A stretch of 39,067 bases of DNA from Frankia torreyi. Its GTDB lineage: Bacteria > Actinomycetota > Actinomycetes > Frankiales > Frankiaceae. The position numbers and the translations under genes are program-made. Each line of letters begins with the position of its first letter. Within the stretch, counting starts at the first letter, position 1. A model generated the notes under the pieces. The model was given only the letters and a program-made list of their open reading frames with translations. It searched no databases and was not told where the DNA came from. The stretch spans positions 23,004 through 62,070 of the forward strand of contig NZ_JYFN01000027.1 of the NCBI RefSeq assembly GCF_000948395.1, in the 5' to 3' direction. Positions 1 through 19,299 of this stretch are shown one piece after another.

Positions 1-3000
1 GGGACCGGGCACAGGGTACGGCCGGCCGCTGGCGATGGCGAGGGTGTGTCCGTCGGGGCTGACGGCGACCGCGGCGACCCGCTGGTCGTCGGCCAGGTCG
101 GCAAGCAGACGGGGGGTCCGGGCACGGGTGACGTCCCACAGCCGCACCCGGCCACCGATGCCACCGTCAGCCATGGCACTCGCGGTGACGAGGGTGCGGC
201 TGTCGGGGCTGAACGCGAGCGCGGTGAGCTTCTGCTCTTCGGGCAGGTCGACGAGCCAGCGGGGCGAGCGCGGCGATGTGACGTCCCACAGCCGTCCCCG
301 AGTTCCGGCCGTGCCTTGAACAGCCACGGTGGCGAGCAGCCGGCCGTCCGGGCTGAACGTCACGGTCGTTGTCGTCGCCCCGCCGGCGTTGACGGTGCTG
401 GTCCGGACCGGATGGCGGACGTTGGCGGCGTTCCAGAGCGTGATCCAGCCGGTGCGGCCGGCGGTGGCCAGGGTGTAGCCGTCGGGGCCGTACGCGACCG
501 CGTTGATGCCGCCGTCGGTTCCCATGTCCAGAACGCGCCCCGGCCGGCCGAGGTCGGTGAGATCCCAGCGTCGCCAGCGCCCGCCGTCGCCCGTGCCCGG
601 CGGGTAGGCACCGGCGGTGATCAGGTGGTGGCCGTCCTGACTGAACGTCAGGGTGGTCAGGAGCTGGTCGTCGTCAAGGCTGGCGACGGGTCTGGGACGG
701 CCTGGATCGGCGAGGTCCCACAGCCGCAGCCGGCCGCCGGTGCCATTGCCGATGTCGCCGGCGGTCGCGACGGTCTGTCCGTCGGGGCTGACCGCGACCG
801 CGGTCGGGGGCTGGTCGTCGTCGACCTCGGCCAGCAGAGACGGGCGGCGCTGGCCGGTGGTGTCCCAGATTCGTAACCGTCCGCCGCCGGCGGCGTCGCC
901 TCGGCCGACGGTGGCGAGCCGGCCGCCGCCGAAGCTGACGCCGATCAGAGCCTGGTCGTCGTCGACCGAGGCGAGCGGATCGAGGCGGACAGTGGAGCCG
1001 GGACGGAGGCGGTCGGCCCCGGAGATGGCCCACAGGCGCAGCAGTCCGCCCCGGCCGTCGCGGCGGCGGCCCGTGGTGGCGAGGAAGCGTCCGTCGGGGT
1101 CGCTGGCGACCGAGGTGAGGAACTCCCTGCCGTCGTCGGCGGAGACTGCCAGGCGCAGGGTGCCGGGGCTGGTGAAGGACCACAGGCGAAGCCGGCTGCC
1201 GCCGCCGTCGGGGAGTTGGCCGGCAGACAGGAGGCGACCGTCGGGGCCGAACGTCAGGGCGGCGGGTGTCTCCCTGGGGATCTCGACCTTGGCGGCGAGG
1301 GCGGGCGGGCGGGTGTGGGCGAGGTTCCACAGCCGCAGCCAGCCGCCGGGCCGGTCGACGTTTCGGCTGAGGACGGCGAGCATCCGGCCGTCGGGGCGGA
1401 ACGCCAGCGCGGCGGGTTCCTGGTCATCGTCGACGCAGCCGGCGGTGACCGGGACGTCGACTCCGATCGACCCGCCAGGTGCGGCAACGGCGGGGGAGGA
1501 CAGTCGGGCCGCGGGCATCCAGCAGATCCGCCCGCGTCGTCGCGGCTCGCTGAGATCGGAGCGGTACCGGCCGCCGGTGGCGAGGACGTCGCCGTGCGGG
1601 CTGACGACTGCCGCCGTGGCGGTCACCTCGTCGCCCATGCCGGCGTCGACGCTGGCTGCCCAGGACGTGCCCGCGACCGTACCCGCGAGGCTCTGTCGGT
1701 TCTCCGGGGTGTCCTGTAGCGCGATGGCGGCGAGTCCCAGGCGCAGCGCTCGAGGCAGGTCGCCGTCGTCCACCTGCTCGGCGCGAGCGGCCAGCAGGCG
1801 GGTCATGGCGGACCGCTCGCGGGCGAGGGCGACGCCGTGCTGTTCGGCCGCGATCAGGCCCGCCGCGAGGAGTGTCGCGGCGAGAACGAGGGCGACCCGT
1901 CGCCGTTGAATCCGCCTGCGCCGCCGGCTCGCGGCCAGGAACATCCGGGTGAGTTCGGGAACGTCGCGCGGCCGCCGAGGGTGTGTTCGGCTCGTCGGGC
2001 CCGGTCGGCGTCCCACAGGTGGCTGGCCGGGTGGCCTTCCTGCGCCCAGTGACCGGCGGCGTCGAGTGCCTGCGCGCCCAGCCGGAGCCGGGCGGTGGAT
2101 GCCTGGATGACGTCGGCCAGCGGCGGCCACGCCGTGACGATCTGCTCGTGGGCGATGGCGATGACCTGCCCGGTGTCCGCGGCGTCGCCGGTCGGCTGCG
2201 CCGCGCCGGCCCCGGGTGCCCGCCGTCGACCGAGGATGCCCCGAGCACGCCACCCCGTGGTCCCGGTTTGCAGCCCTCGACCGGGCCCGGCGCCGATGGC
2301 GCTCCCCCCGTCATCGCCTCGGCCGGGCCGGCCGTCCTCTCCGGCCTCGCCGCCGGACCTGGCCTCGCCGCCGGGTGGGTCGCTGGCCGGTCGGTGGATG
2401 GTGAGCAACCGCCGGTTGACGAAGAATCGCAGGTCAGCCCTGATCAGAGGGGGAAGGTCGTCAAGAGGGACCCGTCGACGGGTGAACTGGCCGTGGTCGT
2501 CGATGGTGATGAGCTGCAGCAGGCTGTCGAGGACCTCCCGGCGGGTGCGCCCGCCCTCCCGGGCCGCGTCGGACAGCGCCCTGTTCGCCTGCTGGACGAG
2601 GGCGCCCCGAACCCCGCCGAGCCGCTCGTAGTGCTGGGCGGACAGGGCCCCGCCGCGGGGCACGCCGGCGGCGAGTTCCCCCAGGACGAAGGCGAGCAGG
2701 GGCAGGGCGTCGCCGCTTCCGGTGTCCGCGACCAGGCGGGCCACCAGCTCGTCGTCGACCTCGATGCCGGCATGCCGGGCGGGTCCGGTGACGATCAGCG
2801 GGAGCGTCTGCGGGCTCAGCGGCCTGACCGAGAAGGTGTCGACGGGAAGGCGGGTACGGGAGGCCAGCGACATCAGCGGGTGGACGAACTCCGACCGGGC
2901 GGTTGCGACCACCCGAGCCGGTCCCCGCACCGCCTCCCGCAGCACCGAGGCGAACAGGATCTGCTGCTCCTCGCTGGTCTCGACCAGCAGTTCCTCCGCC

Positions 3001-4031
3001 TGGTCGACGATGAGCAGCAGCCGGCGCGCCCCGGCGGCGTCGAGGAGGACCTCCAGCAGGCGCGTGATCTCCCCCGGGTCGTCGAGCGCATCGACGAGGG
3101 CGTCGGTCCGCCAGGCCAGGCCACGGCGGCCTTCGACGGCGAGCAGGCTGGCGAGGGAGGACAGTGCCGTCGCCTTCTCGCGCGCGGCGGGGACCAGCGG
3201 CGGCAGGACGAGCCACTGTGGATCCGCGGCCAGGTGCGGCGCCAGCCCGGCCCGGACGAGCGACGACTTCCCGCAGCCGGACGGGCCGATGACCAGGACA
3301 AGCTCGTCCGTGCGCGGCCCGGCCTGCGCACGGACCCGTTCGGCGAGCTGGCGGCTTTCCGCCGCCCGGCCGAAGAAGATCCGAGCCTGGCCCGCCGTGA
3401 ACGCGGCCAGGCCCGGGTACACGGTCAGGTCCGCCGACCACGGCCCGCTGTCCACACCGTCGAGTCGCCGCAGGGCTTCGAGGAGGGCCGCGCGCGCCGA
3501 CTCCCCATCGCCGTCGAGATCGGTCCACTGGATCTCGTTGGAGATCAGCCGGTGGTCGACGTGCGTGTCGACCCGGACCGGTAGCAGCCGCAGCCGGTTG
3601 GCCAGGGCGATGCCCACCTCCGCCGCGCACCAGGGCGACTGCCCGAAGGCGTCGGTGACGACGGCGACGAGCGCGTCCGCCTCGTACAGCTCCTCGAACA
3701 GTCGTCTGGCCCAGATGTCACCGACTCCGAGACCGCTTTCCAGGTCGTGATCGAGAAACGTCCGGTGACCAGCTGCCCGCAACCAGGCCGACAGCCGCTC
3801 CGCGATGGCGAAATCGACGCTGGCGTGACTGATGAAAACCTGTGCCACCTGCACCGCCCCAAATGCGCCTACGGCGGTGGAACCACCGGCGAGATGGCAT
3901 GGTAACGCCTCGGTGGAAGCCGTGGTCGCGGGCGGCGGCAAGCCGACAATCGGTTCCGCCGTTGGCGGGTGCGGCGGTATTGGTGGCCCCGGCGGTCGAT
4001 AGGGATCGGGGGACGGCTGCCTGGTCGCCAT
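1..4031 (-). pseudogene. TIR / STAND NTPase / WD40 protein, frameshifted and truncated by the window edge
   Basis: The N-terminal frame (4031 down to a stop at 1854, 725 codons) has a Pro-rich leader, a TIR domain at residues ~64-190 (starts QVFISHAS; SPWCAAE places the usual catalytic Glu at 138), an FFGR motif at 219, Walker A GPSGCGKSS at 249 and a Walker-B-like IVDQAEELL near 341. From ~1957 to position 1 the neighbouring minus frame is open. It continues the expected STAND text (ELTRMFLAASRRRRR), then a hydrophobic segment (VALVLAATLLAAGLIAA), then at least ten WD40-type units such as AVAVSPDGQTVATAG followed by RLRLWDLA. One missing base at ~1957 explains the break: FP-EL needs one extra G. 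The C-terminus lies beyond the left edge. Known family role: bacterial TIR domains often cleave NAD, and STAND-WD40 proteins act as sensors in programmed cell death or anti-phage defence. The function here is inferred. A GTG just before QVAQVF (near 3852) is an alternative start. It may be a pseudogene or an intact gene with a sequencing error. Confidence 0.85.
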
Positions 4032-17617: not shown

Positions 17618-17777
17618 CTGACGTGTCCGTAGTCCGGGCCGCCGCGTCGGCAGCGCCGGTCTCGATCGGACCGTGCCGCCGGAGTGACGCGGCACCTGGT
17701 TGCACGGCGAATTGCTGGAGGCCGATGCCGATCGTGGGGCGACAAACCGGCATCAAGCTCCTGCAATTCCTGGCCGC

Positions 17778-19140
17778 CTGCCGGCCACGGTGGCGGAGCG
17801 GGAGGTGCCGACGCGGGCGGGGCTGGCGTCGGCGCGGGGGAGTGGCAGGCGACCAGAGCGCGGATGATCGCATTGCAGGAGGAGCTGGACTGGCAGGTCT
17901 ACCGGCTCTACGACCTGCTGGCCGACGAGTTGACCGCGCCGGCCGAGGTCGTGCCGGAACTGAAGCTGGGGGAGCGGGCGTTCGAGATCGTCCTGGCGCG
18001 GCGGATCGCGGCGGGGGAGGCGGAGTCGGAATGGTTCGTCCGGCACAGGTCGACGCCGATCACCGAGCTGCCCGAGCACTGGCCGGCGGAGTACCGGGCG
18101 GTGGTCGAGAAGCGGATCGCCGTCATCGAGTCGAATCGGAGCCTGGCGCTCATCGAACGGCCGGAGTGCAAGCGGCGCTGGTCCACCGAGGGCTGAGACA
18201 TCCTGCAGGAACGGGCGATCCAGGGCTGGCTGCTCGATCGGTGTGAACGCCGCTAGCTGTGGTTCCACCAGATCGACGGGATGGAGCAGCCGCGCCTGCT
18301 CACCACCGCCCAGTTGGCCGACGAGCTGCTGCGGGACGTCGTCGCCGTCGCCGTCGCCGAGCTCTATCGCCCGACCCAGGACCTGACCCGGACCATCGCC
18401 GAACTGGTCGCCTCCGAGCACGTCCCCTATCTCGCCGCGCTGCGATACGCCGATACCGGGCTGGTGACGCGCGCGGTGTGGGAGAACGTCTGGGCATTGC
18501 AGCGGATCGAGGATCCGTATCTCGCCCGGGTCGAGGAGCTGCGGGAGGAGAAGAAGTCCGCGGAGGCGATCGCACGGGACGCCGGTGCCGACGCGGCGGC
18601 GAAGGCGGCCGCGGAGGCCACGCTGATCCGGCTGAAGCACGAGCTGCCCGGGGCCGAGGAGGTGCACCGGCCCTACCGCGAGGCGATTCCGCTGCCGCCG
18701 AAGTATGCCCCGGCGGACTTCCGCCGACCCAGCTTCTGGCGCCAGCGGGGCAAGCTCGACGTGCCGAAGGAGCGGTTCATCTCCTACCCGGAGGCCTCCC
18801 GCGACGGCGATCCCCACCTGCTGCTCGGCTGGGCCGGCTGGGACCATCGCGAGCAGGCCCAGGCGCTGGCGATGCTGATCACCGAGCGGGAGCAGACCGA
18901 CGGCTGGGGGGCGCAGTGGCTCACGCCGCTGCTCGCGGGCCTGCGCGAACTCCTGCCGTGGGTGTACCAGTGGCACGGCGAGTTCGACCCTGACTTACGA
19001 CGGCAGCCCCGTCGAGGTGTACGACTCCACTCCTCGCCGACTACACCAACCGCTTCCAGCTCACCGACGACGCCCTCACCACCCGGCGCCCCACCACGGC
19101 GGCCCGAGGACGCCGCAAGAAGGCGCCCTCGGCCACCTGA
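17778..19140 (+). pseudogene. pglX: C-terminal remnant of BREX-2 DNA methyltransferase PglX
   Basis: Conserved PglX C-terminal text is readable but broken. The frame with EWQATRARMIALQEELDWQV, LGERAFEIVLARRIAAGEAE and PITELPEHWPAEYRAVVEKR runs to TGA 18194, where EG-stop-DIL implies Trp to stop. The same frame continues through a TAG at 18254 (Glu to stop in RR-stop-LWFHQIDGMEQP). It then reads AELYRPTQDLTRTIAELVAS, KLDVPKERFISYPEASRDGD and LLLGWAGWDHREQAQALAML. Near 18992 a one-base change shifts the frame (FDP-TYDGSPVEVYDS), and a second shift near 19030 gives LLADYTNRFQLTDDALTT up to the stop at 19140. A further shift lies near 17840. The N-terminal methyltransferase half with its NPPY-type motif is absent. 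PglX is the adenine methyltransferase of Pgl/BREX-2 phage resistance; this copy cannot work. Confidence 0.88.
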
Positions 19141-19299
19141 AACCCGTTACCGCAGCTCCTGGCCGCCGCACTGCCGGGCTGCGGTCGCCGCCCGGCGACG
19201 TGCGGCCGCCCTCCGCGGAAATCTGAGGCCGCCGCCCGCCACTTGCCTGCTCAGGTCCCGAGGAAAAAGTGCGATATGCGTGGCGTGAGCTGCGCGAGA

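What the first reader, a model, noticed from the sequence alone, without database searches (positions are those of the whole stretch)
1..4031. TIR-STAND-WD40 protein: probable NAD-depleting defence sensor
A TIR domain with the SPWCAAE catalytic-type Glu (E138) is fused to a STAND NTPase and a long WD40 array of at least ten units, one of the largest sensor arrays visible here. TIR NADase activity linked to a STAND switch is established for some bacterial anti-phage proteins. This exact combination, with a hydrophobic segment between NTPase and WD40, is less characterised.
Basis: partly seen in the sequence, partly recalled or inferred. Interest (0 to 1): 0.6.

Follow-up and report, generated by a model that had tools for sequence, protein, structure and literature searches.

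The report
Membrane-spanning TIR immune-type receptor, frame-broken
A Frankia gene encodes a bacterial relative of plant and animal immune receptors whose TIR end and switch sit inside the cell, while its propeller-shaped sensor probably sticks out through the membrane, so it may watch the cell's outside rather than its inside.

Summary
The gene is real. On the minus strand, window 4031-1854 encodes a TIR domain and an nSTAND1 NTPase. A WD40 propeller tail follows in another frame (window 1944-1, ending 488 bases beyond the window). The Frankia relative G005 has one intact ORF at the same site, so the break is an assembly error or a recent mutation. E138 is in the TIR catalytic position. The architecture itself is known.

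What seems new is topology. The hydrophobic segment looks like a family-wide membrane helix: 117 of 128 nSTAND1-type proteins have it, 110 of those with more Arg/Lys before than after. Of 93 long complete tails behind it, 82 have at least two cysteines in their last 60 residues. Best reading: a membrane receptor with TIR and NTPase inside and a disulfide-capped propeller outside.

The site is filled in 2 of 8 Frankia genomes compared and has no intact defence neighbour that I found. Own and G005 alleles differ more (dS 0.59-1.15) than 11 neighbouring genes (0.10-0.27), and dN/dS rises from TIR (0.15) to propeller (0.85). The same chassis also carries DNA-binding, kinase and cyclase N-termini, so NAD-depleting defence is likely but not shown.

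The parts
1854..4031 (-). ORF A: TIR + nSTAND1 NTPase, 725 aa as an open frame; probable true start GTG at window 3848 (residue 62); coding-like part ends near residue 685
3489..3839 (-). TIR domain (TIR_2, residues 65-181)
   Evidence: AF2 model and VIA-align superposition on SPARTA and SARM1 TIR
3618..3632 (-). W134-C-A-A-E138: putative NADase catalytic Glu and preceding Trp, both invariant in 15 of 15 Frankia TIR-nSTAND proteins aligned
2028..3419 (-). nSTAND1 NTPase (PF20703, residues 205-668)
3264..3287 (-). Walker A GPSGCGKS (residues 249-256)
2991..3020 (-). Walker B region LLLIVDQAEE (residues 338-347)
1945..1980 (-). zone in which the coding frame changes; the G005 relative has one unbroken frame here
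1..1944 (-). ORF B part in the window: Arg-rich juxtamembrane, membrane helix, stalk, WD40 propellers; continues 488 bases beyond the window to L008:12515
1897..1926 (-). Arg-rich stretch RRRRRIQRRR before the membrane helix (positive-inside signal)
1840..1896 (-). hydrophobic segment VALVLAATLLAAGLIAAEQ, predicted single membrane helix
   Evidence: family statistics
1615..1839 (-). stalk after the membrane helix; helical in the AF2 model of relative L067
   Evidence: by analogy
1..1614 (-). WD40 propeller region (part in the window); several blades begin with DDDQ in place of the usual GH
1435..1524 (-). first cysteine pair of the tail (tail positions 140 and 169); the C-terminal pair (783 and 808, spacing 25) lies beyond the window

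Best explanation
The gene, where intact, encodes a single-pass membrane receptor of the nSTAND1 family. The N-terminal TIR domain and the STAND NTPase lie in the cytoplasm. One helix crosses the membrane. A helical stalk carries WD40 beta-propellers, closed by a disulfide-bonded C-terminal cap, outside the cytoplasmic membrane. Ligand binding to the propeller would be passed through stalk and helix to the NTPase, which would exchange nucleotide and oligomerise. This would pair the TIR domains into a composite active site that cleaves NAD+ and stops or kills the cell (abortive response to phage at the envelope, or to non-kin or other outside signals). Shown here: the domains, the Glu position, the hydrophobic segment with positive-inside bias, and the paired cysteines. 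Inferred: membrane insertion and topology, disulfide, ligand, oligomerisation, NAD cleavage and biological role. In this genome copy the frame is broken between NTPase and membrane helix. Unless that is an assembly error, the strain makes at most a soluble TIR-NTPase and, separately, a membrane-tethered propeller.
For: TIR/NTPase: Pfam, alignments, AF2 and VIA-align.

Topology, 128 nSTAND1-type ORFs from three samples: 117 have a membrane-type segment (KD19 >= 1.6). Arg/Lys in the 15 residues before it exceed those in the 15 after it in 110 of 117, are equal in 5 and fewer in 2. Of 93 complete tails of 400 aa or more behind it, 81 have an even cysteine number (NTPase part of the same proteins: 56 of 93; N-terminal part: 52 of 93) and 82 have two or more cysteines in the last 60 residues; below the threshold it is 1 of 8 (Fisher p 1.3e-5, relatedness ignored). 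Spacing of the last two is 25 in 45 of those 82 and 24-26 in 59. After reduction to 80 representatives (73 with the segment): 64 of 73 even, 64 of 73 with the pair (1.8 expected by random placement), 0 of 7 without the segment. The three lowest-scoring of the 8 long tails below threshold, L073, L183 and L202, keep a cap-like end (judged by eye) with no cysteine in the last 60 residues. TIR and NTPase need cytosolic NAD+ and ATP (established knowledge), so one helix puts the tail outside.

Conflict role: site filled in 2 of 8 genomes compared; dS of the gene 0.59-1.15 against 0.10-0.27 for 11 neighbours; dN/dS TIR 0.15, nSTAND1 0.32, TM+stalk 0.44, propeller 0.85. In the second TIR-nSTAND-WD40 gene, TIR is below propeller in 4 of 4 comparisons that reached the propeller (6 tried): 0.12-0.27 against 0.37-0.61.
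Against: No experiment on topology or disulfides; actinobacterial proteins are poor in cysteine in general (recalled). 11 of 93 segment-bearing tails lack the C-terminal pair; 5 of these 11 are WD-rich (68 WD-rich in all), two of them with no cysteine (L209, L239). The intact relative G005 has five tail cysteines (odd). L115, score 1.59 and so just under the threshold, has the pair. L073, L183 and L202 do have 4, 6 and 1 cysteines elsewhere in the tail. The threshold was fixed after samples 1 and 2 had been seen; only sample 3 was unseen. No intact defence neighbours found. The TIR is one of many N-termini on this chassis: 7 of 65 scanned. NADase activity is unproven; a Glu in place is necessary, not sufficient. 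dN/dS of 0.85 could also be relaxed constraint or repeat misalignment; in one of the four control comparisons (G005) the stalk exceeds the propeller (0.54, 0.49). This copy may be a pseudogene.
Confidence: 0.6

Rival explanations
1. Cytosolic anti-phage sensor of the bacterial NLR type (as Avs or TIR-NLR): the propeller reads a phage protein inside the cell, and the hydrophobic segment only tethers the protein to, or lies in, the membrane with the propeller facing inward.
For: TIR-NLR from P4-like satellites protects E. coli against phages (PMC9122126, passages); the NTPase part superposes on Avs4; Foldseek lists EfAvs5 at rank 33.
Against: A single helix with Arg-rich N-flank leads the chain outward (110 of 117). 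Tail cysteines are paired, and the three lowest-scoring long tails keep a cap-like end without them. Neighbours found are not intact defence genes.
Confidence: 0.2
2. General signalling receptor, not a killer: the same chassis carries DNA-binding, kinase and cyclase N-termini, so the TIR may produce a signal or be inactive, and the gene may serve development or symbiosis rather than defence.
For: Of 65 segment-bearing N-terminal parts: BTAD 16, Trans_reg_C 13, HTH_31 12, TIR_2 7, Pkinase 6, Guanylate_cyc 6, Peptidase_C14 4, Trypsin_2 3 (rows can overlap). A second TIR-nSTAND-WD40 gene keeps the same neighbour in 10 of 13 genus genomes.
Against: For this gene: presence/absence, strong allele divergence and a fast-evolving propeller.
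Confidence: 0.15
3. Pseudogene or sequencing error only: the frame change is real decay and nothing works in this strain.
For: Two frames; intact in G005; draft genome with ambiguous bases, one directly beside the window.
Against: No further stop over the 913-codon WD40 frame, and codon usage is coding-like on both sides of the break (+124 and +122), so any break is recent or an error. It says nothing of the family.
Confidence: 0.05

Closest known systems
Bacterial TIR-NLR of P4-like satellites (PMC9122126; passages seen)
   Same: By its name a TIR plus NLR-type protein; shown there to protect E. coli against phages
   Different: The word WD40 does not occur in that text; its sequence was not compared here
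nSTAND1 (named in eLife 2021, PMC8195603, passages; Pfam PF20703) and conflict systems of multicellular bacteria (PMC7159879, passages and section 33)
   Same: The NTPase family itself (E 2e-72); N-terminal effectors including TIR
   Different: In the passages I read I saw no description of an nSTAND1 protein with a membrane helix and outward propeller. Section 33 of PMC7159879 describes a different membrane-associated two-gene system (EACC1)
PknD of Mycobacterium tuberculosis (PMC2877116, passages)
   Same: Extracellular beta-propeller used as a sensor domain of a receptor kinase; cytoplasmic kinase and one helix (recalled)
   Different: Kinase instead of TIR-STAND; one six-bladed propeller; no NTPase switch
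Apaf-1 / CED-4 / plant resistosomes
   Same: Fold of the NTPase (Z 13.1-14.0); Apaf-1 is among the best fold matches of the L067 propeller tail
   Different: Soluble, cytosolic propellers in Apaf-1 (recalled); no membrane helix between NTPase and propeller
TIR NADases SARM1, SPARTA TIR, SpbK, AbTir
   Same: Fold and position of the Glu
   Different: Here fused to STAND, membrane helix and propeller; activity untested
Metacaspase-NACHT-WD40 and metacaspase-CHASE2 proteins (PMC3501461, passages)
   Same: A cytoplasmic death-type domain with an outside receptor domain was already proposed there for a metacaspase-CHASE2 protein
   Different: CHASE2 instead of propeller; no TIR; I saw no statement on propeller topology in the passages

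Membership tests
TIR domain with NADase-type active site | TIR fold | tested here: met
   Pfam TIR_2 E 3.7e-22; VIA-align Z 15.2-15.8 to SPARTA and SARM1 TIR
TIR domain with NADase-type active site | Catalytic Glu in the WCxxE-type motif | tested here: met
   E138 aligns with the Glu of the 7uxr chain (AbTir, recalled) and of SpbK LNEM; invariant in 15 of 15
TIR domain with NADase-type active site | NAD+ cleavage | not testable with these tools
   needs an enzyme assay
nSTAND1 NTPase (PF20703) | Score over curated cut-off with Walker A and B | tested here: met
   245.4 bits against 27.1; GPSGCGKS and LLLIVDQAEE
Known PADLOC / NCBIfam anti-phage systems (Thoeris, SAVED-TIR, retron-TIR) | Full-length match to a system protein | tested here: not met
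   only TIR-part or P-loop matches; NCBIfam 32.8 bits against cut-off 220 and 28.3 against 600
Defence-island gene | Neighbouring defence genes | tested here: not met
   PADLOC on 28 distinct ORFs of the own contig besides the gene found only PglX remnant pieces about 14 kb away beyond superfamily-level matches; Pfam of direct neighbours is metabolic or regulatory. G005 and some direct neighbours not scanned with PADLOC
Single-pass membrane receptor with outward propeller | One hydrophobic helix with positive-inside flank | tested here: met
   own VALVLAATLLAAGLIAAEQ after RRRRRIQRRR; 117 of 128 relatives, 110 of 117 biased. By hydropathy only, no dedicated predictor
Single-pass membrane receptor with outward propeller | Paired cysteines in the outer part | tested here: met
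   own 4 (140/169, 783/808); 81 of 93 tails even. G005 has 5
Single-pass membrane receptor with outward propeller | Propeller located outside, disulfide formed | not testable with these tools

The most novel reading that the evidence does not exclude
The nSTAND1-propeller proteins of bacteria as a family are transmembrane one-component receptors: a disulfide-capped WD40 propeller outside the cell, one helix, and a STAND switch inside that drives interchangeable outputs (TIR, caspase, protease, kinase, cyclase, DNA-binding). They would be NLR-like switches wired as cell-surface receptors, a layout I did not find in the texts I could search.
Probability: 0.6. Interest if true: 0.75.

Novelty: new variant of a known kind. 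Interest (0 to 1): 0.52.

Why it matters
Bacterial STAND/NLR proteins studied so far (Avs, bNACHT; recalled) detect phage proteins in the cytoplasm. If nSTAND1 receptors look outward, they would couple outside recognition to NAD+ depletion, proteolysis or transcription through one protein, joining roles that animals split between Toll-like receptors and NLRs. It would give testable ligand-side hypotheses (phage adsorption, neighbours, plant host in a nodule symbiont) for a family found in 42 of 148 genomes sampled from this class, own included. It also warns that cytosolic phage-protein screens may miss their triggers.

Tried and rejected
Rejected: a programmed frameshift or two-gene design as the main reading. 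The intact single ORF in G005 at the same site argues against it; the ATG at 1944 directly before the Arg-rich stretch keeps it possible. Rejected: the 61 codons before GTG 3848 as part of the protein. Rejected as evidence: weak PADLOC/NCBIfam matches of the gene to ThsB, SAVED-TIR, mad3/mad8 and retron-TIR (TIR or P-loop only), and SspA/DndA matches of the class V aminotransferase neighbour (superfamily level).

Led nowhere: the 50 Foldseek rows shown for the whole TIR-NTPase model are AAA+ or STAND proteins; TIR matches appear in VIA-align. PMC5587647 (prokaryotic WD40 survey, term search) has no TIR, STAND or NB-ARC. My codon-based caller did not list ORF A, because ORF A and ORF B overlap by more than the 60 bases it allows; one search scores them apart.

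Counts and dropped rows: one search was an exploratory pass over 43 of the 70 loci. One search used a stricter motif and found no ORF with both motifs in 10 of 38 loci. In one search, with a looser motif, 9 of 70, 6 of 38 and 4 of 40 loci gave none, and 2 further proteins were too short to judge. The threshold (1.6), tail length (400) and the cysteine window (60) were written down, after searches had been seen, so only sample 3 is an unseen test. Identical proteins across samples were not removed; reduces redundancy, and L115 drops out there as a relative of another row. Of the matches listed, 40 were fetched, mostly in order of E-value and none already in sample 2.
Full report
What is there. 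The window lies in a 7.62 Mb draft genome at contig C73:23004-62070. The genus is Frankia: G012's contig C58 has the same length, 20,762 bases, as the Candidatus Frankia nodulisporulans contig behind L069. On the minus strand, ORF A (window 4031-1854) holds TIR_2 and nSTAND1. The WD40 part is in another frame and runs from the ATG at 1944 through the window edge to L008:12515. Codon scores are coding-like for ORF A residues 62-685 and for ORF B from that ATG, and not for the rest of either frame. The G005 genome holds one unbroken frame, 1,394 codons from the ATG called, at the same site, between the class V aminotransferase and the luciferase-like monooxygenase, with one extra HTH gene. So the frame change is particular to this copy; error or recent mutation cannot be told apart here.

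TIR and switch. Against G005 the TIR is 80.6% and the NTPase part 71.3% identical. S, W, C and E of the SxWCxxE motif are invariant in 15 Frankia TIR-nSTAND sequences. A profile of seven TIRs finds solved TIRs, and E138 falls on the Glu of the 7uxr chain and on the Glu in SpbK's CLNEMGATW. The SpbK paper lists mutants N191R, E192A, G194R and W197A, which fits that string, and names Y188 and E192 among likely NAD+-coordinating residues (PMC12847820, passages). The AF2 model (499 aa, 18 sequences, mean pLDDT 82.8) gives VIA-align Z 15.6 to the SPARTA TIR (8spo) and 15.2-15.6 to SARM1 TIR. The NTPase part gives Z up to 18.2 to ORC/Cdc6 proteins and 13.1-14.0 to CED-4, Apaf-1, plant resistosomes and Avs4.

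Membrane helix and outer cap. A first survey suggested that the hydrophobic segment is general and that tails carry paired cysteines. I then took two further samples, from PF20703 searches over 149 genomes of the phylum (24 with a match at 1e-30) and 148 of the class (42 with a match at 1e-60), and fetched 38 and 40 regions. Sample 2 was looked at; all three were counted with one rule, so sample 3 is the unseen test. Together 128 proteins could be judged: 117 with and 11 without the segment. Arg/Lys before the segment exceed those after it in 45 of 52, 30 of 30 and 35 of 35 in the three samples. Among complete tails of at least 400 aa behind a segment, cysteine numbers are even in 28 of 35, 21 of 24 and 32 of 34, and two or more cysteines lie in the last 60 residues in 27 of 35, 23 of 24 and 32 of 34. 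The last two cysteines are 25 apart in 45 of the 82 with a pair. After removing relatives of 50% identity or more, 64 of 73 segment-bearing tails keep the pair, where random placement expects 1.8, and 0 of 7 others do.

Exceptions. Eleven of the 93 tails lack the pair; 5 of them are among the 68 WD-rich ones, and two (L209, L239) have no cysteine. Of 8 long tails below the threshold, the three lowest (L073, L183, L202; scores 0.91-1.09) end in sequences that look like the cap but have no cysteine in the last 60 residues, though 4, 6 and 1 elsewhere; L115, at 1.59 just under the threshold, has the pair.

The gene and its models. The gene itself has tail cysteines 140/169 and 783/808; G005 has 131/146, 462, 772/797. 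The AF2 model of the tail of a Frankia relative (L067, 722 aa, mean pLDDT 78.0) shows a helical stalk, a long run of beta strands as in propellers, and a C-terminal helical cap that carries C692, with C720 near the end; both are invariant in 13 of 13 aligned tails. Among its best fold matches are a repetitive propeller, Apaf-1 and AIP1. Lentzea relatives L068 and L072 have TIR, nSTAND1, helix and the two cap cysteines but a tail of only 86-87 aa and no propeller, so the cap belongs to the chassis.

One chassis, many outputs. All 65 segment-bearing proteins of samples 2 and 3 were scanned at their N-terminal parts: BTAD 16, Trans_reg_C 13, HTH_31 12, TIR_2 7, protein kinase 6, cyclase 6, caspase 4, Trypsin_2 3 (rows can overlap). 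The TIR form is therefore one output of a signalling chassis.

Site and evolution. Eight genomes were compared at the site, own included, of 13 in the genus sample. The gene is present in own and G005; absent, with flanks present, in G001, G011, G004, G012 and G008; G003 has the monooxygenase but no TIR gene beside it. Between own and G005 the gene has dS 0.68 (TIR), 0.59 (NTPase), 1.15 (TM+stalk) and 0.65 (propeller), whereas 11 neighbouring genes have 0.10-0.27: the two alleles look older than their surroundings, as expected for allele replacement (inference). dN/dS rises 0.15, 0.32, 0.44, 0.85 along the protein. A second TIR-nSTAND-WD40 gene keeps the same neighbour in 10 of 17 loci compared, one in each of 10 of the 13 genus genomes, own included. 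Of 6 comparisons tried for it, 4 reached the propeller, and in these TIR is 0.12-0.27 and propeller 0.37-0.61, with the stalk above the propeller in one.

Defence setting. PADLOC scans of 28 distinct ORFs in the window and to its left, besides the gene itself, found a PglX C-terminal remnant in two ORFs (window 17684-19288) and otherwise superfamily-level matches. Direct neighbours by Pfam are a luciferase-like monooxygenase, DUF1634, TauE, Usp, an esterase-type hydrolase, a class V aminotransferase and a methyltransferase; of these only TauE and the aminotransferase were also scanned with PADLOC.

Known or new. nSTAND1 was named in PMC8195603 (passages). The word nSTAND1 occurs in two papers of the library; in the passages I read of both nothing describes a membrane-crossing nSTAND1-propeller. 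PMC3501461 (passages) proposes an outside receptor for a metacaspase-CHASE2 protein, so the general idea of an outward sensor on a death-type protein is not new. PknD is the closest layout (PMC2877116, passages). Ten library searches did not show the outward-propeller claim in their listings; most subscription papers are not in that library.

Noticed in passing
window 17684-19288: Two adjacent ORFs in different frames match successive parts of the PglX (BREX/Pgl) C-terminal region (profile 809-926 and 955-1149 of 1189; DUF7008), with a rhomboid-like gene upstream: apparently a decayed PglX remnant.
   Followed up: partly
G000:C126:15862-17319 (L010:7881-10880): A second TIR-nSTAND1-WD40 gene (43% identity) keeps the same neighbour gene in 10 of 17 loci compared, one in each of 10 of 13 genus genomes; such a conserved member is unusual for a defence gene.
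   Followed up: partly
L068, L072 (Lentzea): TIR-nSTAND1-membrane helix-cap proteins that lack the propeller but keep the two cap cysteines: natural sensor-less versions.
   Followed up: no
samples 2 and 3 (L165-L242): BTAD, Trans_reg_C and HTH_31 DNA-binding domains sit on segment-bearing nSTAND1 proteins (16, 13 and 12 of 65 scanned): possible membrane-bound transcription regulators.
   Followed up: no
window 1-1614: Several WD40 blades of this gene begin with DDDQ where GH is usual; the G005 relative has DDQ or DDR at several places too.
   Followed up: no
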